Shown here: piece after piece, positions 31,608 through 53,786 of the stretch | How positions within the stretch are numbered: position 1 is the stretch's first letter | How the letters are laid out: every line of letters starts with the position of its first letter | Source of the DNA: Chloroflexota bacterium | Lineage (GTDB): Bacteria > Chloroflexota > Dehalococcoidia > JACPEP01 | Reading direction: 5' to 3' | NCBI GenBank assembly: GCA_016183425.1 | Contig: JACPEP010000024.1 | Location: 51,939 to 115,938, forward strand | Length of the DNA stretch: 64,000 nt | The notes under the pieces: generated by a model | Database searches by the model: none | What the model saw: the letters and a program-made list of their open reading frames with translations, nothing else | Told to the model about the DNA's origin: nothing | Translations under genes and position numbers: made by a program

Positions 31608-34600
31608 TTACCACGTCACGGGCCCGCTCCGCCCGAAGTTTGTCCCCACCAGCACCAGGTCGTAGATATTCACCACACCGTCGCCGTTGATGTCCGCCCG
31701 GGAGTCGCCTGGTGGCACCGGGAGACTATAGTTGGCTCCTGCCAGCACCAGGTCAAAGATGTCCACATCGTTGTCTCTATCGCCGTCGCCGCCGAGAAGT
31801 CGCAGCCCGGGAAGTCCCGTTCCTACCGCCGCCGCTCGTTGAGCCGAGAGGTAGCCGGGCATGGCGATGGTGACGGTGTAGGTGCCCGTGGGCACGAAGA
31901 GGAAGTAGCCGCCATTGGAGAGGCTGGTGGTGGAGTACACCCCCAAGCTAATGGAGGCCCCAGCGTCGTTGGCCCGCCCCTGAAGATCCACCTGTCCCGA
32001 AAGGGGGCCTTTGGGCACGTCGTCCAATGAGATGTCGATGCCCGTGGGGCTGCTACCGGCCACAGTGACCGGCTTACCGTAGCCGTAGGCCGCCACGGGC
32101 TCGCCGGGGTCAGGGGAGGCACCGCCGGAGTCGTTGGAATCCAAAAAGGCCACAATGTAGTAGGTTCCGTTGGCTACACCGGTAATGGTGTAGGCCCCGG
32201 GCCCGAGGATGGAGGTCATATACTCCGGTGGCTGGCTGGGGTTGGTGGTGGCCCCCAGATAGATGGTATGACTGCCCACTACCCCTCCCGTGTAGCTGAC
32301 GTATCCACTGATGCTATTTCCCCCCCCCGAGGGGGCAGCGGCAGCCGTTCTGGCCAGGAGACCGTAGTCGGTGAAGTGGAATATCTGGAAGCTAACCCGG
32401 TGGTTGACCGTGTCCACGACAACGTTGTCCACCGGCCGCCAGGAGGAGGTGGCATCGTCCCAGTAGCTGGGCACCAAAGCGGTCTCGGTGACCCCCAGGC
32501 GGGCCAACTGCTCCTCGGTGTAGCTGAAAACGATGGTGACGGCGGAGTTGAAGCTGTTTATAGTCTCCCCAGTGTCCTTAGCGGCGGAAAGGCGGTAGCC
32601 CAGGCCCAAGGGTCTCATATCTCGCTCTCGAGGCAGGTTGGCCTTGGGAACCGCTCGCAACGTTACGGTGCCCGTAGGCACCATAGCTCCGGCGGGGATC
32701 TGGATCTGGGTGCCGTCGGAGAGATTGATGATCCTCATCTGGGAGGCGTCGAAGGTGAAGGATTCCGGCGGCGGAAGCGTCCCGGCCACGGTGAGGGTGA
32801 TATTCTGGGTGGCCAACCCAGAGTCGCCCACAACGACCCTCAGGTCCTCGCTGCGGTAGAAGGTGGTACCCTCCTCGGAGTTGGCCCCCAGGTGCCAGAC
32901 ATCGCCCCGGGTGACGCCCAGGGTGAAGGTTCCGCTTTCCGTGGGCATCCAGTTATTGCCCCCGCTCTCGGACCAGGCCCAAACAAAGGCACGATGAGGA
33001 ACCCCATCCAGGGTCACCACGCCGGAGATGACACCGTCGGCAGCGCGGAATCGGAAGTCGATATTGGCGGTGCCCGTCACTCCCAGAGTAGTGCTTACCG
33101 GGTGAGGAGACACCAGGCCCCGCTCCTGGCTGACCCGGGAATCTATCCAGTAAGTGCCGCCCGGCACCCTAAAGCTGTAGCGGCCCAAGACATCCGTCCG
33201 GTCGCCCACGTGGATAGAGCGGCCAGCGCCGACGTTTACCACTTCATGGGCACCCACCCAGGCTCCGGCCAGGGGAGAGCCGCCAGCATCGTAGACGGTG
33301 CCCGAGACGACGGCGCCCGCCCTAACCACGGTGACATCCCACCTCTGGGTCTGACCGCTGTATACGGTTACCCGGTTGTCGGAGCGCTGACGCACTACGT
33401 AGCCAGTCCCCGGCTCTACCCAGGTTCCCATGTTCCAGGTGCCCGAGATAACGTTGAGACGGTAGGCGGCCGTTGCTGGGTCGGAGCGGGTATGCTGCTG
33501 GCCACCCTGGAGGCTCATGGCGTGAATCTCCACCGGCACCCCTGTCTGGGGCGCATCGTTGATGTTGTATATGGTGCCCGTGATAGCGGCATCGTTAGCC
33601 CTGGCTCGTAGCTCCACGGAAACACTGCCACCGGAGGTCACCGTTACCGGCACCGAGCCCATCACGGTATAGCCCACCCCGGGTGGGAAGCCAGCGCTCA
33701 CCCGATAGCTGCCCGCCGGCACGTTGATGGTAAATAAGCCTCTTTCGATGGGAGCGCCGGGGCCGGGCTCGTGTTCCCGCTGGACGAAGGCATACCCGTA
33801 GAGGTCGCTGAGCACGTTCCCAGAGACATCGTCCACCACCCGGCCCAGAATGCGGGCATCGGTGGCGATGACCCGCAGGGTAACTGTCTGTACCCCTCCG
33901 TTAGGGACGGTGACGGTGGTAGGTGGACCGGTGCGAGTATAGGAGGAGTCCGGTGAGGGCTGAGGCTCCACCTGCCAGGTGCCAGAGATGACAGGCAGGA
34001 CAAATACCCCGTTGGTTATGGTTTGAGTGTGGACCCAGCCGCCACCTCCCTGGAGCCAGGCGCTTACCTGCATATCGGCAACGCCCTGGTCGGCGTCGTC
34101 CTTCACCTGGCCCACGATTCGGGCGTTGCGCTCCAGAAGACGGACATCGCCGATGTTGCGGCTCTCACCATCGGCCACGGTGACCCGAAGGTCGCCGGGG
34201 GCGGCATAGGGCCAGTCGCCACGGTAAGCATGTACCTCCATAGCATAGGTGCCGCCCGGCAGAGGGACGCTGAAGGTGCCATCGGTATTGACCTCTCCCC
34301 AATTGCCCAAGCCCTCCGTGTTGTGGAAACTCACACTTACCGAGTGAGGCTCAAAGCTAGTCGCGCCCCTAAAGCTGGCCGTGGCACCAGGCACAACGAG
34401 GCGGCCGTAGACGGAGGCGGTGGCATGAACCACCGTCATGGTGATCGTTTTTGTCTCTTCTGAAGTAGCGCCCAGGTCAAAGGAGACCGACTCGGGTGGG
34501 CCGGAGCGGGCCCAGTTGGGCTGCGGAGCGCCCTCCCGAGGGTCGGGCCCCAGGTTCACCATCCAGGTTCCCGGCGAAAGGTCCATGGTGAAGCTGTAGG

Positions 34601-37454
34601 GGCCGCTGGAGGAGACGAAGGCAGAAGCGAAGCCAGAGCCATCGTTACGGTTGGCGTGCGCCTCGGCGCCGATTACCTGGCTGCCATCGTTGCTGCGCAC
34701 CAGGCCCACCAGGTGCTTGGTGGCGCGCAGGAAGTAGATGGAGCCCACGTCATTGGTGAGCCCGGCGGTCACGGCTACCGAGCGGGCTGGTGGGGGCACG
34801 ATGCCGGACATGCCCCAGGGGACGTACAATTCAAGGGAGTAGATGCCTGAAGACAGATTGGAGATGGCAAACCTGCCGTCCAGGCCGGTGCCTGAGTGGG
34901 CTTCCCGGGAGTAGTCGGAGTTGTGTACCGATACCCCCGCACGAGTAGCTGGTGAACCATCGGGCATGAGCGCCCGGCCCCGAAGGACAGGCACCGTGAG
35001 GGTGAGCACTGTGTTAACCGTGACGTTGGAAATTACATTTAAGGTGACTGCCCCTGACGAGCCATAGAGGCCCGAATCCTCCGATGAAGGAAAGGCCTCC
35101 AACTGATAGGTGCCACTGATAAGCCCCCCGACTTTGAATCTTCCCCCATCATCGGTGCCAGTACCGGGGAAGCGCCTTCCCCCCGAGCTTACACCGATGC
35201 CGGTGTGGGGAGCGGGAGTGCCATCGGGGTGGTTTACGGTGCCCGTGATATTGGCCCGGGTGAGGTAGAGGTTCAGGGTCTGGGTAACACCTGGCGTCAC
35301 CGTCACCGGAACAGAGGCTGATTGAGCGTATGGAGAGGCGGAAGGGGCATAGGCTTCTGCCTCGTAGCTGCCGCCGGGAATGCCGCCCAGGCGGTAGCGG
35401 CCGCTTTCATCGGTGCTGGCTCCCCATTTCTGGCTCCAATCGAAGTTGTGTAGGTTTACCCATGCCCACGGCACCGGGGAAAGACCTGGGTCATATACGA
35501 TGCCCGATATGAGGATGAAGGACAAGGGGATGTCACCGGCGTTCAAGGCCGGCCCCCCGGCGGTGTAGGAGATGAGAACGGACTCCGAATTAGCGTATGC
35601 CTCGAAACCGGAGCGCCGAGGGACATCGGCACGAATTAAGTAGTTCCTGGTAGGTACGCTGCCGAACTTGAATCGGCCATTATCATCGGTTTGGGCATCT
35701 CGACGAATAGCGTCCATGGAACCCGACTCTTCATAGAGGCTGACGTGAGTATCGGAGACAATAGTGACAGCATCGGCTGCCCCTGTCGCACCAGCCGGGA
35801 GCACCACCCGGCCGTAGATGGCCACCAAGGGCAGGGGCACGTCCCCCAGATTGAGGGCCGGGCCGCCGGAGGTATAGCTTATGGGATTGGGAGCCGAGTC
35901 AGCGTAGCTATCGAACCCCGGCCGCTCCGGAACATCCGCTTTGATGAAGTAGTCGCCCGTAGGCTTAGGCCCGAACTTGAATTGGCCGCTGCTGTTGGTT
36001 TGAGTGTGGTCACTGAAGGTGTAGTCGGGGGAGTACAGTGCTACGTGGGTGCTGGTGACGGGAACGGTGGTACCCGTCAGCACCACCCGGCCGTAGATGG
36101 CCACGGGAGATAAGGACACATCCCCCACGTTGAGGGCGGGGCCGCCTGAGGTGTAGGACACGGGAATGGGCACCGAGTCGGCGTAGCTGTCGAACCCCGG
36201 CCGCTCCGGAACATCCGCTTTGATGAAGTAGTTCCCCGTGGGCACCCCACCAAAACCGAAGATGCCATTCCCGTCCACGCTGTCGTATCGATCGAAGCTG
36301 TGGTTTTCGTTGTACAGCGAGACGCCGGTTCCGGTAACGGGCGTCGTGGTGCCGGGCAGCACAACACGACCATAGATGGCCACGATAGATAAGGCCACAT
36401 CCCCCACGTTGAGGGCGGGGCCGCCTGAGGTGTAGGACACGGGAATAGGCACCGAGTCGGCGTAGCTGTCGAAGCCGGGGCGGGAGGGGACGTAAGCCTT
36501 AATAAAGTAGTTGCCGGTGGGCACCCCACCAAAACCGAAGATGCCGTCCGAACCAGTGCTGGTGTTTTGTTGGAACGAGTGGTTTTCGTTGTACAGCGAG
36601 ACGCCGGTTCCGGTAACGGGCGTCGTGGTGCCGGGCAGCACGAGACGACCGTAGATAGCCGCCTGGCCCAGGGGCACGTCTCCCATGTTTAAAACACCTG
36701 AGGTGTAGCTGATGGGCACCGGATCAGAGTCGGCGTAGATGCCGAATCCCGGCCGGTTCGGGGCGTAGGCAACCACCTGGTAGGAGCCCGCCGGCAAATC
36801 ACCCAGGCGGAAAACACCGCCGTTGTCGGTTCTCGAAAGCCTATTAATGGTTCTATCGGCGTTGAAGAGGCTGACATTGGTTCTGGTCACCGGTGTGCTG
36901 GTTCCGGGAAGAACGACCCGCCCTTTCACGGCCAGGAGAGGCATAACAATGGTGCCTACACTCAGGGGAGTCCCGGTGTAGTTTACCGGCATGGCGAAAT
37001 CGGCGTAAGCGCCATAGGTGGTGGTGGGCGTTCTGGGGATGCTGACGAACAGGATATATGAGCCACTGCCAACAGAACCCAAAGCGAAACCCCCCAGGCT
37101 ATCGGTGCTGGTGGTTATCACCACACTCTCTAAGTCGGATTTGAAGAGGATCACCGTGACCGTGGGCACCGGCGTGGTGTCTGTCAGCACCACGGTGCCG
37201 GTGATGCTTACCGTTACCGACAAAGGCAGGGCTACAGCGGTGCCCGTGCTAGGGTCGTAAGGGTAATTGGTCTCGGCCACAAAGGAGGACGGAACTCCTT
37301 GATAGAGGGAAACGTCTTTAGGGATTGAGGCTTCCGCCCGAGTTAAAAAGGCAAGTCCAGCCGCAAATACGAAGAGAGCTAAGACTGAGATGAAAGAGAG
37401 AATGAAACCCAATCGGAGCGATTTCTTGCCAATGAAATGCCCGAGGTCGTCCAT
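31608..37454 (-). CDS. Giant secreted multi-repeat protein (carboxypeptidase-regulatory-like domains) with C-terminal dockerin-like domain
   Basis: N-terminal TM/signal; many GRVVLPGTTTPVTGTGVSLYNENHSF...GFGGVPTGNYFIKA repeats; C-terminal GDGDRDNDVDIFDLVLAGANY...ADINGDGVVNIYDLVLVGTNFG. Confidence 0.88.
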   Translation of the reverse strand: MDDLGHFIGKKSLRLGFILSFISVLALFVFAAGLAFLTRAEASIPKDVSLYQGVPSSFVAETNYPYDPSTGTAVALPLSVTVSITGTVVLTDTTPVPTVTVILFKSDLESVVITTSTDSLGGFALGSVGSGSYILFVSIPRTPTTTYGAYADFAMPVNYTGTPLSVGTIVMPLLAVKGRVVLPGTSTPVTRTNVSLFNADRTINRLSRTDNGGVFRLGDLPAGSYQVVAYAPNRPGFGIYADSDPVPISYTSGVLNMGDVPLGQAAIYGRLVLPGTTTPVTGTGVSLYNENHSFQQNTSTGSDGIFGFGGVPTGNYFIKAYVPSRPGFDSYADSVPIPVSYTSGGPALNVGDVALSIVAIYGRVVLPGTTTPVTGTGVSLYNENHSFDRYDSVDGNGIFGFGGVPTGNYFIKADVPERPGFDSYADSVPIPVSYTSGGPALNVGDVSLSPVAIYGRVVLTGTTVPVTSTHVALYSPDYTFSDHTQTNSSGQFKFGPKPTGDYFIKADVPERPGFDSYADSAPNPISYTSGGPALNLGDVPLPLVAIYGRVVLPAGATGAADAVTIVSDTHVSLYEESGSMDAIRRDAQTDDNGRFKFGSVPTRNYLIRADVPRRSGFEAYANSESVLISYTAGGPALNAGDIPLSFILISGIVYDPGLSPVPWAWVNLHNFDWSQKWGASTDESGRYRLGGIPGGSYEAEAYAPSASPYAQSASVPVTVTPGVTQTLNLYLTRANITGTVNHPDGTPAPHTGIGVSSGGRRFPGTGTDDGGRFKVGGLISGTYQLEAFPSSEDSGLYGSSGAVTLNVISNVTVNTVLTLTVPVLRGRALMPDGSPATRAGVSVHNSDYSREAHSGTGLDGRFAISNLSSGIYSLELYVPWGMSGIVPPPARSVAVTAGLTNDVGSIYFLRATKHLVGLVRSNDGSQVIGAEAHANRNDGSGFASAFVSSSGPYSFTMDLSPGTWMVNLGPDPREGAPQPNWARSGPPESVSFDLGATSEETKTITMTVVHATASVYGRLVVPGATASFRGATSFEPHSVSVSFHNTEGLGNWGEVNTDGTFSVPLPGGTYAMEVHAYRGDWPYAAPGDLRVTVADGESRNIGDVRLLERNARIVGQVKDDADQGVADMQVSAWLQGGGGWVHTQTITNGVFVLPVISGTWQVEPQPSPDSSYTRTGPPTTVTVPNGGVQTVTLRVIATDARILGRVVDDVSGNVLSDLYGYAFVQREHEPGPGAPIERGLFTINVPAGSYRVSAGFPPGVGYTVMGSVPVTVTSGGSVSVELRARANDAAITGTIYNINDAPQTGVPVEIHAMSLQGGQQHTRSDPATAAYRLNVISGTWNMGTWVEPGTGYVVRQRSDNRVTVYSGQTQRWDVTVVRAGAVVSGTVYDAGGSPLAGAWVGAHEVVNVGAGRSIHVGDRTDVLGRYSFRVPGGTYWIDSRVSQERGLVSPHPVSTTLGVTGTANIDFRFRAADGVISGVVTLDGVPHRAFVWAWSESGGNNWMPTESGTFTLGVTRGDVWHLGANSEEGTTFYRSEDLRVVVGDSGLATQNITLTVAGTLPPPESFTFDASQMRIINLSDGTQIQIPAGAMVPTGTVTLRAVPKANLPRERDMRPLGLGYRLSAAKDTGETINSFNSAVTIVFSYTEEQLARLGVTETALVPSYWDDATSSWRPVDNVVVDTVNHRVSFQIFHFTDYGLLARTAAAAPSGGGNSISGYVSYTGGVVGSHTIYLGATTNPSQPPEYMTSILGPGAYTITGVANGTYYIVAFLDSNDSGGASPDPGEPVAAYGYGKPVTVAGSSPTGIDISLDDVPKGPLSGQVDLQGRANDAGASISLGVYSTTSLSNGGYFLFVPTGTYTVTIAMPGYLSAQRAAAVGTGLPGLRLLGGDGDRDNDVDIFDLVLAGANYSLPVPPGDSRADINGDGVVNIYDLVLVGTNFGRSGPVTW

Positions 37455-43922: not shown

Positions 43923-44138
43923 ATGATAACGAAAGGGTCATCGAAATCCCCGATCACCCACAGGGTCAAAGCCACGCTCGCAACCGAGCCGGGGCTGAGT
44001 GTCAAGGATCTGGCAGAGCGGCTGAAGGTGAACCGCCAGTTTATGGCGGGTTTTCTGGCCGCCCTTGAGGAGATGGGCCTAGTCATGCACAGACAGGTTG
44101 GGCCTGCCCGCACGTACTTCAGTGTCGACAGGAGATGA
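43923..44138 (+). CDS. Small winged-HTH regulator
   Basis: ITHRVKATLATEPGLSVKDLAERLKVNRQFMAGFLAALEEMGLVMHRQVGPARTYFSV. Confidence 0.6.
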   Translation: MITKGSSKSPITHRVKATLATEPGLSVKDLAERLKVNRQFMAGFLAALEEMGLVMHRQVGPARTYFSVDRR

Positions 44139-44206
44139 TAGCATGGACTGCCCAGCGAGCCACACAACAGAGTTGCGTGGGGCTAGAGGGACAACAGGTG
44201 GTTAGC

Positions 44207-45532
44207 ATGTGCTTCGTCGATCTTTTTGCGGGTCTGGGTGGATTTCATCTGGCTCTAAGAAAGCTCGGTCACACGTGCGTGTTCGCCTCTGAGATCGACG
44301 AGACGCTGCGTGACGTCTACGAGAAAAACTTCGGAATGAGGCCGGAAGGAGACATTCGCAACGTGCATGCGAGTGAGATTCCCCCTCATGAGATTCTCTG
44401 TGCTGGGTTCCCATGCCAGCCGTTCTCCAAGGCTGGGAGCCAGGAGGGTTTTGATGACCCTGAGCTTGGCGGGCTCTACAAGGACATCCTACGAATTATC
44501 CGGCATCACAGGCCTCGCTATGTCATCCTTGAGAACGTGCCTAACTTGCAGAACCATGACGAGGGCAAGACATGGGAAATTATAGAAGGGCGTCTTCGCA
44601 GAGAGGACTACGACGTTCAGCTTAAGAGGCTATCGCCACATCACTTCGGGATACCACAAATCCGTGAACGTATATACATCGTAGGCAGCACTCGGCTGCT
44701 CGACGGCTTCGCCTGGCCCGAACACGTGCCGGCCAACACGCAAATCTCGATTAGGTCTGTCCTCGATTCTAAACCTCCTGAGGCGCGGCCTCTCCCAGAG
44801 CAGGTAAAGCGATGCCTTGAGGTATGGCAGGAGTTCGTAAATCGAATCCCGAAAGACGAGAAGATCCCACACCCACTCTGGTCCATGGAGTTCGGCGCGA
44901 CGTATCCATACGAGGACACCACACCCAGCGCTCTCTCGACAGACGAGTTGCGACGGTACCGCGGCTCACATGGGCTCCCACTTCGAGAAGCGACGGACCG
45001 AGAGGAGATATTCAATCTGCTTCCATCCCATGCAATAACGAAACAGGCCAGCTTCCCTAGCTGGAAGGTGCAGTTCATCAGACGCAACAGGGAGTTCTAC
45101 CAGCGTCACAAGACCTGGGTTGACAGATGGCTACCAAAGATTGTGGAGTTTCCCTCTAGCTTTCAGAAGCTTGAGTGGAACTGCCAAGGCGAGAGCATCC
45201 GACGGCTGGACAGATACGTGGTACAGCTAAGAGCCTCGGGAGTCCGAGTAAAGCGTCCGACGACAGCACCATCTCTCGTGGCTATGACTGCAACCCAGGT
45301 TCCCATCATCACCTGGGAGAGCCGCTACATGACGCCGACAGAGTGCAAGCGACTTCAGAGCATGCAGGACCTTCGGTGGCTACCAGAGAGCCCCACAAAG
45401 GCATACGAGGCGCTTGGAAACGCGGTCAATGTTGAGGTTGCTCGTCATGTGGCAGCGGAGCTTGTCGGTCAGGCTACCGGCCTGCGTGCGCTGCTTGAGC
45501 CGATAGCTGCGTATCTGCCACTAAAGAGATAA
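44207..45532 (+). CDS. DNA (cytosine-5) methyltransferase
   Basis: FVDLFAGLGGFHLALRKLGH (I), AGFPCQPFSKAG (IV), VILENVPNL (VI), QIRERIYIVG (VIII), EALGNAVNVEVARHVA (X). Start may instead be 44135. Confidence 0.95.
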   Translation: MCFVDLFAGLGGFHLALRKLGHTCVFASEIDETLRDVYEKNFGMRPEGDIRNVHASEIPPHEILCAGFPCQPFSKAGSQEGFDDPELGGLYKDILRIIRHHRPRYVILENVPNLQNHDEGKTWEIIEGRLRREDYDVQLKRLSPHHFGIPQIRERIYIVGSTRLLDGFAWPEHVPANTQISIRSVLDSKPPEARPLPEQVKRCLEVWQEFVNRIPKDEKIPHPLWSMEFGATYPYEDTTPSALSTDELRRYRGSHGLPLREATDREEIFNLLPSHAITKQASFPSWKVQFIRRNREFYQRHKTWVDRWLPKIVEFPSSFQKLEWNCQGESIRRLDRYVVQLRASGVRVKRPTTAPSLVAMTATQVPIITWESRYMTPTECKRLQSMQDLRWLPESPTKAYEALGNAVNVEVARHVAAELVGQATGLRALLEPIAAYLPLKR

Positions 45533-45566: not shown

Positions 45567-47132
45567 ATGGTTCGCAGTCGTACTCAGCAGACGATAAACA
45601 TTCGCCCTGCTGTTAGCGTATACGCGACCTATAGGCGGCTCAGCTATACGCCTTGGTATGCTATTGCTGAGTTTGTGGACAACTCAACCCAGAACTACTA
45701 CGACCATAGAGGAAAGCTCCTTCAAGCGTATAGGAGGGACAGCAACCCTGGACGGCTGCGCGTTGAGGTCTCCTACGACAGCGAGAGAAACACCCTAACC
45801 ATTAGAGACAACGCCAACGGGATGAACATTGAGGAACTCGCAAGAGCAGTCGTGCTTGACAAGCCTCCTCCAAACACCTCCGGACGATGTGAGTATTGTA
45901 TGGGCCTAAAGACTGCTGCGTGCTGGTTTGGTACGACATGGACTATCCGAACCACACGGCTTGGTGTAGCTAAGGAGTATACCGCAACTGTTCATGTTCC
46001 TGAGTTGGTAGAGCGGCAGACGGAGGAGATTGTGGTAGTCGAGCGGCCGATGCAGCGAGGAGAGCACTTTACTGTTATCACTATAGAGGGGCTCTACAAG
46101 CCCATTCGAGGACGGACGCCTGCTCGCATTCGAGACCAACTCGGTAGCATGTACCGCCAAGACCTGCGCTCTGGTGAGGTCGAAATTATCTGGAATGGCC
46201 AGCCTGTTCAGTTCGAAGAGCCTCCTATCCTCATCGAGGAGTCGGACGGCATACGGACGACCTGGAAAAAGAAGGTCTCGTTTGAGGTTCCCTGGGATCC
46301 TGCGGGTCGGCCGTTTCCAGTAAGAGGATGGATCGGCATTCGGATACCAGCAAGCCAGCGCGATGCAGGCTTTGCGCTGCTTCGCCGAGGTAGGGTCGTT
46401 GTTGGAGGACCTGCTGAGGGCTACAAACCTGTGGAGATCTTTGGGCAGGGTAACACCTTTCGCTCGCAGAGGCTTATAGGCGAGCTTCGTATGGATGATT
46501 GGCCGGTGACTCAGGCGAAGGACGCCTTCGACTGGTCCGGCGGGCTTGAGGACGCCTTTATTGAGGAGCTAAGGAGAGCCTGTCAGGACTACATGGATAA
46601 GGCGGAGGGCTATCGCCAGCCTGGTCGCCGAATCGTACAGTCCGAAATGCAACTTGTGTCGGAGAGAACACGACAGGTCTTCGCTGACCAGCGATTCGGC
46701 ACAGCGGTGACACAGGAACTGGCTCTCCCAGAGCCACCTAAGACCGAGGAGCAAGAGTGGTCTGACACTGCTAAGCTGCGGTCGGTTAGCGATGGGCCAG
46801 TCGTGTATAGGGTTCCCGTTGGGGCCGACCAGTGGATCTTTCATCTACATTGGCAGGACCAACTCAGCGACGCCCACTGGATGAGCGTGAGCTACCCAGA
46901 GGATACTGTAACTGATATCTTCCTAAACATGGCGCACCCGTTTTTTGCACGATACATGGACAACGCTGATTTCCTTGAGTTGCTCCAGAAGTTCGTGCTT
47001 GCACTGGCGCTGGCGGAGCGCATGGCTCGCCAGACATCCAGAAATGGGCTTGTCTCGCCAGGAGATTTCCGCAACTATATGAATAGGGTGCTCCGATATA
47101 CGGCAGAGATAGAGGCTGAGAATAGTGTCTAG
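45567..47132 (+). CDS. GHKL ATPase of MORC/MutL-like R-M type
   Basis: N-box AIAEFVDNSTQNYYD, G1 IRDNANGMN, G2 EYCMGLKTAACWFG; encoded with MTase/Z1/DUF4420. Confidence 0.85.
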   Translation: MVRSRTQQTINIRPAVSVYATYRRLSYTPWYAIAEFVDNSTQNYYDHRGKLLQAYRRDSNPGRLRVEVSYDSERNTLTIRDNANGMNIEELARAVVLDKPPPNTSGRCEYCMGLKTAACWFGTTWTIRTTRLGVAKEYTATVHVPELVERQTEEIVVVERPMQRGEHFTVITIEGLYKPIRGRTPARIRDQLGSMYRQDLRSGEVEIIWNGQPVQFEEPPILIEESDGIRTTWKKKVSFEVPWDPAGRPFPVRGWIGIRIPASQRDAGFALLRRGRVVVGGPAEGYKPVEIFGQGNTFRSQRLIGELRMDDWPVTQAKDAFDWSGGLEDAFIEELRRACQDYMDKAEGYRQPGRRIVQSEMQLVSERTRQVFADQRFGTAVTQELALPEPPKTEEQEWSDTAKLRSVSDGPVVYRVPVGADQWIFHLHWQDQLSDAHWMSVSYPEDTVTDIFLNMAHPFFARYMDNADFLELLQKFVLALALAERMARQTSRNGLVSPGDFRNYMNRVLRYTAEIEAENSV

Positions 47133-49290
47133 ACCTATAGGGATAGATCCGGCTAGCGATACTGGCTCGCTGCGCTCCATATCCATTGATGGGTCAGAGA
47201 TTCAGCGGCTAGCGGCTCGATACCGAGAGCAAGACCAGATATCTGAGGAAGAGTGGGATGATGTTATCGCTACCGCAGCAAGAGCGCTGTCACAGTGCCC
47301 AGACCCCGCCGGGCAACCTAGGCGAGGAACTGGTCTGGCTCTTGGCAAGGTCCAGAGCGGTAAGACGCTGTCCTACACCGCGCTGATTGCTCTAGCTGCT
47401 GACAATGGCTACCGAATCACTGTTGTTCTAGCAGGCACGAAGAATCCGCTGCTAGAGCAGACGTATACACGTCTAAGCTATGACCTTGACGCTCGCCGGC
47501 GAACTGTGGTCGTGTTCAAGAACCCTCTGCCACAGGACGCTGATGTTGTCCTCAGCGTTCTCCATGGCGGGGGGCACGCGCTTGTTGTTGCTCTCAAGCA
47601 CAGGAAACGCATTGACGATGTAAGGAGGCTGCTTGCGGCGCCTGAGCTAAAAGTGTTCCCAACCCTTGTCATTGATGACGAGGGTGACGAGGCATCGCTG
47701 AACACACAGTTTCGCAGTGGCAGGCTCTCGGCTACATATAGGAGCATACTTAGCCTAAGAGACGCCCTCCCTTTGCACGCCTACATGGCCTACACAGCTA
47801 CTCCGCAGGCAAATCTTCTCATAGATGGTATAGACGCGCTCTCCCCAGACTTCGCAGTTCTTGTGGAGCCTGGGTCAGGCTACTGTGGAGGCTCTGTGTT
47901 CTTTGGAGAGCACAGCAATAGCTGCGTCCGCCAAATTCCAGCCGGAGACGGCGACCCTGAGTCTGCGGCCAAGGTGACTGGCGGACTAAGACAGGCGATA
48001 GCCACATTTCTCGTGGGTGCAGCTATCCGCTTCACTCGGGGAGACCACTCAGGACACTCAATGCTCGTCCACACCAGCCATCTAAGAGCAGATCATGAGA
48101 GTCTTCAGAGGGCTGTTAGGAACCTCATCCTCAAGTGGCGAGAGACGGTCAAGCTCAGAGACGATGATCCAGAGGTGGGGGGGCTCCTGACGCTAGCCCG
48201 TGGTGCCTATGATGACCTGTGCACAACAGTTGAAAGCCCGCCGCCATGGAGTGACGTGCGAGCGCAGCTACGCGACGAGGTGTGGCTGACCGAGGTGTGG
48301 ATGGTGAACAGTCTCCCTCTTGGAAGAGACCCTATCGAGACCCCGTTCAGGCTGAGGAACAACATTCTGATCGGTGGCAACATGCTTGGTCGAGGCGTAA
48401 CCATCCCCCAGCTTGCAGTGACGTACATTACCCGCGAGGCTCAGCAGGACACGAATGCAGACACGCTAGAGCAGCGGGCAAGATGGTTCGGCTATAAGCA
48501 GGCGTACTGTGACCTCTGCCGCATTTTTCTGACGAGCCATCTACGAGACCGATACACAGAGCTCCTCAGGCATGAGGATGACTTCTGGGAGGCGCTTCGG
48601 AGAAATGAGAGGCAGCGGCTATTAGTAAGGGACTGGCCCCGCATGTTCAGGCTGGACATGCGGGGCTGGCAGCTTCGGCCGACTAGACCCAGCGTTGCCA
48701 ACTACAGGCAGTTCCGGGGAGGTGGATGGGATATCCAAAACCGGCTGGTTGAAGACCTCGAGGGAGCCTCATGCAACGTGAGGGTGGTAACAGACTTCTT
48801 TAGGCAGCACACCACCGAGGTCCGGCGCTACGGTAATGTCGAGCATCTTGTAATACCAGCCTGCCAAACTGATGCCGTTATCTCTGAGCTTCTTGCTCAG
48901 CTAGAGACACAGGGCACGGACTGGGAGAGCACCTACACGATTGAGTATCTTACACGCCTGCTTCTGGGAGGTCGCCTCCCTGCCATTGAAGTGCTGCGGA
49001 TGACGGAGGGACAGCCAGGAGATCTTCGACCACGAGTGCGAACTAAGCGCGATGGTCGCGTCAACCCGATGCAGGGTCGCTCCCCAGAGCGGGAGCCGAC
49101 GGACCCCATGTTCTATCCAGGGGATGAGAACATTCATAGCAACCAGCCTCAGTTGCAGGTGCATCTTATAAGGGCTCAAGGTGACGAGATCCCACAGCCA
49201 GTGGATACAACAGCTCTCGCTCTGTATATACCGAAAGACGATCCCCTGTACGATCTTAGGGCAGTGGTTAGAGGAGAGGAGAGGCCATGA
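47125..49290 (+). CDS. Z1-domain helicase-like ATPase
   Basis: LGKVQSGKTLSYTALIALA; LVIDDEGDEASLN; MAYTATPQANLLIDG; NILIGGNMLGRGVTIPQLAVTY. Confidence 0.9.
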   Translation: MSRPIGIDPASDTGSLRSISIDGSEIQRLAARYREQDQISEEEWDDVIATAARALSQCPDPAGQPRRGTGLALGKVQSGKTLSYTALIALAADNGYRITVVLAGTKNPLLEQTYTRLSYDLDARRRTVVVFKNPLPQDADVVLSVLHGGGHALVVALKHRKRIDDVRRLLAAPELKVFPTLVIDDEGDEASLNTQFRSGRLSATYRSILSLRDALPLHAYMAYTATPQANLLIDGIDALSPDFAVLVEPGSGYCGGSVFFGEHSNSCVRQIPAGDGDPESAAKVTGGLRQAIATFLVGAAIRFTRGDHSGHSMLVHTSHLRADHESLQRAVRNLILKWRETVKLRDDDPEVGGLLTLARGAYDDLCTTVESPPPWSDVRAQLRDEVWLTEVWMVNSLPLGRDPIETPFRLRNNILIGGNMLGRGVTIPQLAVTYITREAQQDTNADTLEQRARWFGYKQAYCDLCRIFLTSHLRDRYTELLRHEDDFWEALRRNERQRLLVRDWPRMFRLDMRGWQLRPTRPSVANYRQFRGGGWDIQNRLVEDLEGASCNVRVVTDFFRQHTTEVRRYGNVEHLVIPACQTDAVISELLAQLETQGTDWESTYTIEYLTRLLLGGRLPAIEVLRMTEGQPGDLRPRVRTKRDGRVNPMQGRSPEREPTDPMFYPGDENIHSNQPQLQVHLIRAQGDEIPQPVDTTALALYIPKDDPLYDLRAVVRGEERP

Positions 49291-50288
49291 GAGTCGCCGA
49301 CCTTTTCCAGCAGGTAAAACATAGCTCCTCTGGTCACACGTTCACGGCTGCTCACGTACCTAAGCATCAAGAGGCATATATAGCGTCTGATACCTCCGGC
49401 CGCCCAATCCTGTTCGTCAGGGCTGAAGAGTGGATGCCAGGTTCGCCACTACGCACTGCCCACGTCTCCCTCCGGCCTAGCCAGACATACCGCCTGACTC
49501 TCGCCGACGGGTCCCAAACAGCGGCCCTGTTCCATGCTCTGTGCTGCGAGACAGCAGAGCGCTCTGATGTAGACACGTTTCTTGTGCTCGTGGAGGCGTT
49601 CCTAGCTCGGTACGAGGGACAGGCAATCACTGGTGAGTCGCTCGTGTCCTTCTTCAGGTCTGTGGTTCGCCTCTTCGCTGTTGGCCACGCGAGGGACATC
49701 GAGGCCGAGCGTCTAGGCCTCTGGGGCGAACTCTTCGTAATGAGCCGCGTCCGAGGGCTTCAGTTCTGGGCACCGTTCTGGCATAGCGAGACAACCCGAA
49801 GGTTTGACTTTTCGGCAGCCAGACGCCGGGTTGAGGTGAAGACCACTATAGGAGCACAGCGCATCCACCATTTCTCCCATCGCCAGATCTACGCAGAGAG
49901 TGGGGAGGAGATAGTTATTGCCTCGCTCCTTGTGCGAGAGGATGACGCAGGGCTTAGCTTGCGAGAGCTAGTCCTCCAGTGTCGGCAGGCGCTTCTCGGC
50001 ACACCCCACATCATTAAGCTCGAGAGAGCTGTGCGCAGTGCAGGAATGGAGGACCCCTCAGAGACAGGACCAGCCTTCGACCCCACAGAGGCCGAGAGGG
50101 AGCTTGCGTGGTTTCGGTCTACGGAAGCTCCACACTTTCGAATGCCCGAGCCTCCGGGGGTTTCTGAGACTCGGTACAAGGTAGACCTCTCGACGGCGCC
50201 TCAGTTGGTCCCAGACGAGGTCGAGGAGTGGCTAGACTCCTGGGTGACGGAGAGACCGCAGCTAGCTGTCAGTCGACAAGAGTGGTGA
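49287..50288 (+). CDS. PD-(D/E)XK motif protein (DUF4420-like)
   Basis: ERLGLWGELFVMSRVRGLQFW...RRFDFSAARRRVEVKTTIGAQRIHHFSHRQ; coupled to the Z1 gene by ATGA overlap. Confidence 0.87.
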   Translation: MRVADLFQQVKHSSSGHTFTAAHVPKHQEAYIASDTSGRPILFVRAEEWMPGSPLRTAHVSLRPSQTYRLTLADGSQTAALFHALCCETAERSDVDTFLVLVEAFLARYEGQAITGESLVSFFRSVVRLFAVGHARDIEAERLGLWGELFVMSRVRGLQFWAPFWHSETTRRFDFSAARRRVEVKTTIGAQRIHHFSHRQIYAESGEEIVIASLLVREDDAGLSLRELVLQCRQALLGTPHIIKLERAVRSAGMEDPSETGPAFDPTEAERELAWFRSTEAPHFRMPEPPGVSETRYKVDLSTAPQLVPDEVEEWLDSWVTERPQLAVSRQEW

Positions 50289-50293
50289 ACTAA

Positions 50294-51058
50294 GTGGCAA
50301 GGCAGGTAAGTCCAGATCGGGCGCTAGCGACAAACCACTTCCGGCGGTTCGCTTACAGGCTATCCAAGAAGGTCGTAGAGTGGTTTCGCTGCAACGGAAG
50401 AGAGTTCCCCTGGCGTACCACGTCCAACCCGTTCCATTTGCTGATTGCTGAGGCTCTGCTTCGTCAGACGCAGGCAGAGCGAGTTGTCGAGCCATATCTG
50501 GACTTAGTCAGCAAGTACCCAAATCCAGAGGCTCTTGCAGAGGCAGATGTCAATGAACTTCGCCAGTGGTTCAAGCCTTTTGGTCTGGTCAGGCGGGCCG
50601 ACCGCCTAATCCAGTGCGCTCGGATACTGATCAGCGAATACAGAGGTAGCATGCCCAATGACCTAAATGCTATAGAGGCGCTCCCCGGCCTCGGCAGGTA
50701 CAACTCCCGTGCCATTCTGTGCTTGGGTTTCGGCATACCTGCCCCTATGATCGATGAAGGGAGTGGTCGCGTTCTTCGAAGGGTGCTCGGGCACGAGGCT
50801 AAAGGCCCTGCCTACTCAGACAAATGCCTCATGAGCATAGCTGAGCGCATTATACCTACCAAGTCAGCGAGGGAATTCAACTTTGGTCTCATAGATGTTG
50901 CCGCAGCGTTTTGCCACCCTAAGGAGCCGGATTGTGCTCGTTGTCCACTAGCCAGACTTTGCAACTACGCAACCGAAAGCGGAAGACAAGGATGCGCCTC
51001 CTTAAGTGACCTCAAGCAACGACAAGCAGCATCGGTCAAATCGGTGAACAACCAATAA
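50294..51058 (+). CDS. HhH-GPD DNA glycosylase with [4Fe-4S] cluster, Mig (mismatch G:T)-like
   Basis: EFPWRTTSNPFHLLIAEALLRQTQAERV; LPGLGRYNSRAILCLGFGIPAPMIDEGSGRVLRR; C-x6-C-x2-C-x5-C. Confidence 0.87.
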   Translation: MARQVSPDRALATNHFRRFAYRLSKKVVEWFRCNGREFPWRTTSNPFHLLIAEALLRQTQAERVVEPYLDLVSKYPNPEALAEADVNELRQWFKPFGLVRRADRLIQCARILISEYRGSMPNDLNAIEALPGLGRYNSRAILCLGFGIPAPMIDEGSGRVLRRVLGHEAKGPAYSDKCLMSIAERIIPTKSAREFNFGLIDVAAAFCHPKEPDCARCPLARLCNYATESGRQGCASLSDLKQRQAASVKSVNNQ

Positions 51059-51084: not shown

Positions 51085-51534
51085 GTGTCCCTCTTTCGCC
51101 TCAGAGAGCTATGGAAGCTCGCCAAACTAGGCCAGATGGACAAGGATCCTCTGACCTACGAGACTCTCTTAGCAACAGCGCTCTTCCCTTCTGCAATTGT
51201 AATCCCGTTTCAGGCTTCGCCCGGCCGCAACCAACTCATTCTGGGCTTCCAGCAAGGTGACAAACCAGTAGGCGTTTCTGAGGAAGCGCTTAACCGTCAT
51301 ATCGTAGTGGCAGGTGCCACAGGCGTAGGCAAGACAAACTGGCTCAACTTCTTTGCGTCGCAATTGCTGGGAGTCGGCAAGACCGCTATCTGGCTTGACC
51401 TCAAGAATGAGGCAAGGCATCTAGTCCGCGCCTTTCCGGACCTGTGGGTCTTCCCTATGGAGGACTTCCGCTGGAACCCTCTTGAGGTGCCGGCCGGCGT
51501 GCGGCCAAAGCAAAGTCGGGGCGAGTGGATTTGA
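51085..51534 (+). pseudogene. 3'-truncated HerA/VirD4-like ATPase
   Basis: NRHIVVAGATGVGKTNWLNFFASQLLGVGKTAIWLDLKNEARHLVRAFPDLWVFPMEDFRWNPLEVP, then runs into the tRNA-Pro copy and stops. Confidence 0.7.
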
Positions 51535-51588
51535 ACCACCGACCTCAGCGTCCCGAACGCTGCGCGCTAACCGGACTGCGCTACGCCC
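51515..51588 (-). repeat. Truncated tRNA-Pro(CGG) copy (att-like direct repeat)
   Basis: 74 bp identical to 53711-53784; lacks the first acceptor-stem bases (mismatched ACGGGCG). Confidence 0.9.
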
Positions 51589-51655
51589 GTGCTGAGGCAT
51601 TCGCTCCCGTTTTTTCTTGCTAGAATAGAGTGTTGACGGCGTTAGAAAACAAGAA

Positions 51656-53635: not shown

Positions 53636-53711
53636 TCTTCACCCGCCCCCTAAGACGGGTGCTACCCACCAAACAATCCCATTCCCAGAGCTTTGGGAAT
53701 TCGTAAGCTGG

Positions 53712-53786
53712 TCGGGGCGAGTGGATTTGAACCACCGACCTCAGCGTCCCGAACGCTGCGCGCTAACCGGACTGCGCTACGCCCCG
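53712..53786 (-). tRNA. tRNA-Pro (anticodon CGG)
   Basis: CGGGGCGTAGCGCAGTCCGGTTAGCGCGCAGCGTTCGGGACGCTGAGGTCGGTGGTTCAAATCCACTCGCCCCGA; complete cloverleaf. Confidence 0.95.

What the first reader, a model, noticed from the sequence alone, without database searches (positions are those of the whole stretch)
50294..51058. Mig-like glycosylase as a built-in 5mC-deamination repair arm of the R-M operon
At the position of EndoIII Lys120 and MutY Ser120, this protein has Tyr (LPGLGRYNSRAI), as in the G:T-mismatch glycosylase Mig.Mth (GKY), and it keeps the catalytic Asp (MIDEGSGRVLRR) and the C-x6-C-x2-C-x5-C cluster. Established: Mig.Mth is plasmid-encoded beside a C5 methyltransferase and corrects T:G from 5mC deamination; Vsr does this in other systems. 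Inference: this gene is the system's own mismatch-repair guard.
Basis: partly seen in the sequence, partly recalled or inferred. Interest (0 to 1): 0.72.

Follow-up and report, generated by a model that had tools for sequence, protein, structure and literature searches.

The report
Restriction operon carries own mismatch-repair glycosylase
A bacterial DNA-defence operon that marks its own DNA with 5-methylcytosine also carries a relative of the archaeal enzyme Mig, which probably repairs the mutations that such marks cause, and sister operons elsewhere carry the unrelated repair enzyme Vsr instead.

Summary
The gene, its coordinates and the motifs are real. It is the fifth gene of an intact operon: C5 methyltransferase, MutL-like GHKL ATPase, Z1 helicase, DUF4420 PD-(D/E)XK nuclease, then this 254-aa HhH glycosylase. 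The conclusion still stands on better evidence. The best PDB match is Mig.Mth by sequence and by fold. The substrate pocket has Phe and Phe where MutY has Leu and Gln. A supported tree excludes it from MutY. At least 14 of 19 Mig-type genes found in 400 same-phylum genomes have a C5 methyltransferase nearby, against 0 of 12 MutY-type genes. The host has one detected C5 methyltransferase and no detected Vsr, MutY or TDG/Mug. Among 33 Z1 + C5-methyltransferase systems, 17 carry Vsr, 4 carry Mig-type, none both. Mig-type genes entered such systems from at least two, probably three, lineages. In the closest relative the methyltransferase has been swapped while Mig stayed with the restriction genes. 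Best reading: a base-excision substitute for Vsr, guarding against 5mC deamination. Activity is untested. Mig beside a C5 methyltransferase is known; its use as the Vsr alternative in MORC/Z1 operons appears unreported in the papers searched.

The parts
44135..45532 (+). C5 DNA methyltransferase, 465 aa, motifs FAGLGG, PCQPFS, ENV, RERIYIVG, GNAV intact; the only PF00145 match in the host assembly
   Evidence: PF00145 E=2.3e-65; motifs; own-genome search
45567..47132 (+). GHKL (MORC/MutL-like) ATPase, 521 aa, with EFVDNS and DNANGM motifs
   Evidence: PF13589 E=6.4e-12; motifs
47125..49290 (+). Z1 superfamily-II helicase, 721 aa; Walker A GKVQSGKT, and DTLEQRARWFG matching the published DThhQXuRhFG motif; overlaps the gene before it by 8 nt
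   Evidence: PF10593 E=1.4e-41; motifs
49287..50288 (+). PD-(D/E)XK (DUF4420) nuclease, 333 aa, FDFSAARRRVEVKT; overlaps the Z1 gene by 4 nt
   Evidence: PF14390 E=8.8e-20; motif
50294..51058 (+). Mig-type HhH-GPD glycosylase, 254 aa, GTG start 5 nt after the nuclease stop; F38, E53, A61, Y136, D154, F197 pocket; no MutY C-terminal domain found
50912..50962 (+). codons of the four cluster cysteines C207, C214, C217, C223 (predicted [4Fe-4S])

Best explanation
The gene encodes a monofunctional, predicted [4Fe-4S] HhH glycosylase of the Mig type. It recognises G:T (and probably G:U) mispairs that arise when 5-methylcytosine made by the operon's methyltransferase deaminates, and removes the thymine using Asp154, leaving an AP site. 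Host AP endonuclease, polymerase and ligase then restore C, and the methyltransferase re-marks the site. It does the job that the Vsr nicking endonuclease does in sister operons, by base excision instead of nicking, and probably without Vsr's dependence on one target sequence. Shown here: gene, operon, pocket residues, phylogeny, association with C5 methyltransferases, alternation with Vsr. Inferred: substrate, activity, sequence independence.
For: PDB best hit Mig.Mth 1kea 148 bits, next MutY 114; best fold match 1kea, TM 0.88 on the target. Pocket: F38 and F197 (Mig F27/L187 positions) against L and Q/H in MutY. Tree: 18 Mig-type rows one clade 96/99; in a wider tree MutY is a clade 100/99 that excludes it. 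Fails the NCBIfam mutY (155.5 of 286.5 bits) and nth (89.5 of 211.7) cut-offs; only HhH-GPD found by Pfam. C5 methyltransferase near at least 14 of 19 Mig-type genes in the phylum, 0 of 12 MutY-type with long flanks, Fisher p=4e-5. Same pairing on plasmids of Methanothermobacter, Caldicellulosiruptor, Thermus and haloarchaea. Z1 + C5 systems: 17 Vsr, 4 Mig, 0 both, 12 neither. Two Z1-type relatives in one class have Vsr (G020) or Mig (G057) directly after the methyltransferase. Host: one C5 methyltransferase, no Vsr, no MutY, and a UDG that reads as family 4.
Against: No activity data. Mig Arg47 is Gln here and Leu187 is Phe, so the pocket is not identical to Mig.Mth; MutY also has Gln at the first of these. 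In this operon the gene is 4.8 kb from the methyltransferase, at the far end after the nuclease, and has stayed with the restriction module while the methyltransferase was swapped, so a tie to the effector rather than to methylation cannot be excluded. Five of 19 Mig-type genes have no C5 methyltransferase in view (one at a contig edge, three of them similar loci in related genomes). Twelve of 33 systems have neither gene in the region seen, so the repair arm is optional.
Confidence: 0.78

Rival explanations
1. It is a MutY: the host's adenine glycosylase for A:8-oxoG, by chance next to the R-M genes.
For: MutY superfamily fold; the host assembly has no other MutY; NCBIfam's top name is mutY, below cut-off; Tyr136 and Gln58 also occur in MutY.
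Against: Outside the MutY clade (100/99); MutY's Gln182 position is Phe; no C-terminal 8-oxoG-recognition domain found; co-directional, 5 nt after the preceding gene; the 55% orthologue in G149 sits in the same operon, and that genome also has a separate MutY-type gene.
Confidence: 0.08
2. It is a restriction effector: the glycosylase attacks modified or mispaired bases in phage DNA, like Brig1 or the R.PabI restriction glycosylases, rather than repairing host DNA.
For: It stays with the GHKL-Z1-nuclease module while the methyltransferase is swapped. DNA glycosylases in defence are established (PMC11078745, PMC10273834).
Against: Brig1 belongs to the UDG superfamily and R.PabI to a different enzyme family; the Mig pocket is kept; many Mig-type genes pair with a C5 methyltransferase outside Z1 systems, e.g. 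L067, L068, L074, L107-L110; Vsr alternates with it.
Confidence: 0.09
3. It is a 5mC demethylase-type glycosylase that removes intact 5mC, as plant ROS1/DME do, thereby regulating methylation.
For: Same HhH-GPD superfamily (ROS1 appears among the PDB relatives of the host EndoIII); linked to a C5 methyltransferase.
Against: Tyr stands at the position of the lyase Lys, its nearest kin is a T:G enzyme, and removing the protective mark would expose the host to the operon's own nuclease.
Confidence: 0.02

Closest known systems
Mig.MthI (plasmid pFV1, Methanothermobacter thermautotrophicus), T/G-U/G mismatch glycosylase, PDB 1kea
   Same: 33-36% identity, nearest solved relative by sequence and fold, same HhH-FeS domain and size class, Phe27/Ala50/Tyr126/Asp144 kept, linked to a C5 methyltransferase and a restriction nuclease
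   Different: R47 is Gln and L187 is Phe here; host system is a five-gene GHKL-Z1-DUF4420 operon, not the NgoPII-type pair on pFV1; the gene sits at the restriction end, not beside the methyltransferase
Vsr very-short-patch repair endonuclease (PF03852)
   Same: Same presumed task (T:G from 5mC deamination) and same operon company: 17 of 33 Z1 + C5 systems examined
   Different: Unrelated RE-fold nicking enzyme; usually directly beside the methyltransferase (15 of 17, 0-56 bp); never in the same locus as a Mig-type gene in my sample
MORC/paraMORC - SFII helicase - RE-fold R-M operons (Iyer, Abhiman and Aravind 2008, PMC2292703)
   Same: GHKL ATPase, helicase with the DThhQXuRhFG motif, PD-(D/E)XK nuclease, C5 methyltransferase
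   Different: The paper lists Vsr as the frequent repair gene; the word glycosylase does not occur in it
MutY A/G-specific adenine glycosylase
   Same: Same superfamily; Tyr and the FeS ligands shared
   Different: Clade, pocket (Leu/Gln versus Phe/Phe), missing C-terminal domain, operon context

Membership tests
Mig-type T:G mismatch glycosylase | HhH-GPD domain with catalytic Asp and four-Cys FeS loop | tested here: met
Mig-type T:G mismatch glycosylase | Phylogeny: with Mig.MthI, outside MutY and Nth | tested here: met
   Mig-type clade 96/99; MutY clade 100/99 excludes it (there the Mig-type rows are a grade or a clade depending on the root)
Mig-type T:G mismatch glycosylase | Tyr126 (needed by Mig.MthI for T:G; PMC2714593) | tested here: met
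   Y136, but shared with most MutY, so not diagnostic
Mig-type T:G mismatch glycosylase | Thymine pocket: F27, hydrophobic 187, A50, R47 | tested here: inconclusive
   F38, F197 and A61 agree; R47 is Gln. A50 also occurs in MutYs of this phylum. F/Y27 plus non-Gln187 separated all Mig-type from all MutY rows
Mig-type T:G mismatch glycosylase | Excises T (and U) opposite G | not testable with these tools
   needs purified protein
MutY | Gln182-equivalent, C-terminal 8-oxoG domain, place in MutY clade | tested here: not met
   Phe197; only HhH-GPD found; below mutY cut-off; outside clade
Endonuclease III (Nth) | Lysine nucleophile at the Tyr position | tested here: not met
   Y136; 89.5 bits against a cut-off of 211.7
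MORC/paraMORC-Z1 R-M operon | GHKL ATPase + SFII helicase with DThhQXuRhFG + RE-fold nuclease with E-D-ExK + methyltransferase | tested here: met
   assignment to MORC or to one paraMORC family was not tested
Vsr (PF03852) | RE-fold Vsr domain | tested here: not met
   no Vsr anywhere in the host assembly

The most novel reading that the evidence does not exclude
In this lineage the T:G repair arm belongs to the restriction module, not to the methyltransferase: the glycosylase works with the MutL-like GHKL ATPase and Z1 helicase of its operon, so any C5 methyltransferase can be swapped in without losing protection, a base-excision counterpart of MutL-assisted very-short-patch repair.
Probability: 0.15. 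Interest if true: 0.75.

Novelty: new variant of a known kind. Interest (0 to 1): 0.5.

Why it matters
C5 methylation makes every protected site a mutation hot spot, and how mobile restriction systems avoid harming their hosts is an open question. Repeated use of two unrelated enzymes, Vsr or a Mig-type glycosylase, in the same kind of operon suggests that selection asks for T:G repair as such. It makes direct tests possible: exchange the two and measure C-to-T rates at the methylated sites. It also flags a naming problem: Mig-type genes are called adenine glycosylase, nicking endonuclease or hypothetical protein in public annotation.

Tried and rejected
Tyr as the diagnostic residue: rejected. 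Ala50 alone as diagnostic: rejected, because many MutYs of the same phylum have it. Reading the gene as host MutY: rejected by clade and pocket. Viral contigs: no relatives found with the window protein or with Mig.MthI as query; the alignment was too diverse for that scan. The genome-contig scan with the single protein found only MutY and Nth relatives plus one short partial match. DUF4420 on plasmids gave one record. Several paper look-ups failed on term rules or on holdings. Mutual exclusion of Vsr and Mig is only weakly significant by itself (p=0.044 with 4 Mig systems) and the systems are not independent.

Full report
WHAT IS THERE. The reading frame at 50294-51058 (+) is intact, 254 aa, with a GTG start 5 nt after the stop of the gene before it. 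Pfam finds one domain, HhH-GPD, E=1.3e-13. Upstream and co-directional lie a C5 methyltransferase (44135-45532), a GHKL ATPase (45567-47132), a Z1 helicase (47125-49290) and a DUF4420 PD-(D/E)XK nuclease (49287-50288). The last three overlap one another by 8 and 4 nt, so co-transcription is likely. Catalytic motifs of all four are intact, and the Z1 protein has DTLEQRARWFG, the DThhQXuRhFG motif that defines the third operon type of Iyer et al. 2008. PMC2292703 states that such operons often carry cytosine methylases and Vsr.

PMC2714593 notes that B. stearothermophilus MutY has the same Tyr, and describes a Tyr at that position in T. thermophilus MutY (Y112), without their being ordinary T:G enzymes. 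My table confirms it: every MutY-type protein sampled has Tyr there except E. coli, which has Ser. Ala50, also quoted as Mig-specific, is common in MutYs of this phylum. Two positions do separate the groups: Mig 27 (Phe or Tyr versus Leu; one MutY, L019, has Phe) and Mig 187 (Leu, Phe, Trp or Tyr versus Gln or His). All 18 Mig-type rows and the further ones follow this. The window protein has Phe38 and Phe197. Arg47 of Mig is Gln here.

FAMILY. The best PDB match is Mig.Mth (1kea, 148 bits), ahead of MutY (114 bits) and EndoIII (70 bits). An AlphaFold2 model from a shallow alignment (pLDDT 77, residues 225-254 low confidence) matches 1kea best (TM 0.88 on the target, 2.8 A), but MutY cores are close behind (0.83), so the fold alone does not decide. 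In a 47-row IQ-TREE tree the 18 Mig-type rows form one clade, 96/99. With more rows, MutY is a clade at 100/99 that leaves out the window protein; whether the Mig-type rows are then one clade or a grade depends on the root. The protein fails the mutY and nth equivalog cut-offs. PADLOC's only hit files it as a type II nicking endonuclease.

COMPANY. The published Mig.Mth gene lies near a C5 methyltransferase and an NgoPII-type nuclease on pFV1. The same pairing appears on plasmids of Caldicellulosiruptor, Thermus and five haloarchaeal genera; the Mig-type gene on a Gloeothece plasmid has no C5 methyltransferase within 9 kb. In 400 genomes of the host's phylum, ranked by a Mig-type profile, I found at least 19 Mig-type genes. 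The result list was cut and lower-scoring candidates were picked by short frame, so 19 is a minimum. Fourteen have a C5 methyltransferase in the fetched region; the other five are three similar loci (G358, G346 and, by score, G364; two of them read, next to a response regulator), one in a defence-like neighbourhood (G013) and one at a contig edge (G243). None of 12 MutY-type loci with long flanks has one (Fisher p=4e-5). I infer that the phylum is Chloroflexota, since Thermomicrobium roseum MutY groups with it.

VSR OR MIG. I collected 33 loci with a Z1 helicase and a C5 methyltransferase from three sources: the host's phylum, the phyla of a Pseudomonas and of a Lachnospiraceae genome, and plasmids. 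Seventeen have Vsr, four have a Mig-type gene (the window, G149, G057, G823), none has both, twelve have neither in the region seen. G020 and G057, of one class and with the same long type of Z1 protein, have respectively Vsr and Mig directly after the methyltransferase. In the tree the window/G149 pair, G057 and G823 lie on different Mig-type branches, the latter two nearer to Mig-type genes of non-Z1 loci. Recruitment has therefore happened at least twice, probably three times.

THE METHYLTRANSFERASE WAS SWAPPED, MIG WAS NOT. Between the window and its nearest relative G149 the GHKL, Z1, nuclease and Mig proteins are 66, 65, 59 and about 53% identical, far above any other system (about 22-34% for the first three). 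Their methyltransferases are only 42% identical: the window's is 55-57% identical to those of G229, G321 and G334, and G149's groups with those of G348 and G247 (split 100/99). Vsr, by contrast, lies within 56 bp of the methyltransferase in 15 of 17 loci. I infer that a Mig-type enzyme need not match the methyltransferase's target sequence, as Vsr does in E. coli. The same fact fits a restriction-effector role, which I keep as a rival.

HOST. The assembly is about 95% complete. It holds one PF00145 methyltransferase (this one), no Vsr, three HhH-GPD proteins (an EndoIII by PDB match, a second whose motifs I read as EndoIII-like, and this one) and one UDG with motifs that I read as family 4. 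Within that limit, this gene is the only dedicated T:G candidate beside general mismatch repair, which I did not search for.

VERDICT. The inference is supported; the stated reason is not. Mig beside a C5 methyltransferase is known. What appears new is the place: the repair slot of GHKL-Z1-DUF4420 operons, alternating with Vsr. No paper in the searched library joined Mig.MthI and Vsr in my searches, but the library lacks most subscription journals and REBASE could not be consulted, so novelty is provisional.

Noticed in passing
51515-51590 and 53709-53786 (-); 51085-51534 (+): Two tRNA-Pro(CGG) copies share 74 identical bases; the first has mismatches at the acceptor end, and a HerA/FtsK-like ATPase fragment of 149 aa runs into it. 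This looks like an integration scar at the right edge of the R-M operon.
   Followed up: partly
L112 7315-9222; L114 7874-9069: Mig-type genes without a C5 methyltransferase in view, beside a response-regulator gene (and a RadC-like gene in L112) in related genomes: perhaps a housekeeping T:G or U:G enzyme.
   Followed up: partly
L037, L040, L044 (haloarchaeal plasmids): Mig-type gene + C5 methyltransferase + ATP-binding protein, with SprT-like and DUF6339 genes nearby, on two haloarchaeal plasmids; L044 has DUF6339 genes near its Mig/methyltransferase pair too. Possibly a further R-M type.
   Followed up: no
31608-37454 (-): A 1948-aa secreted-looking protein with many repeats of about 80 residues (carboxypeptidase-regulatory-like) and a dockerin-like C-terminus, by eye only.
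   Followed up: no
plasmid collection hits H9, H10, H34, H38-H40: Several records labelled as plasmids are chromosome-sized (2-5 Mb) and carry chromosomal mutY matches; counts from that collection are inflated accordingly.
   Followed up: no
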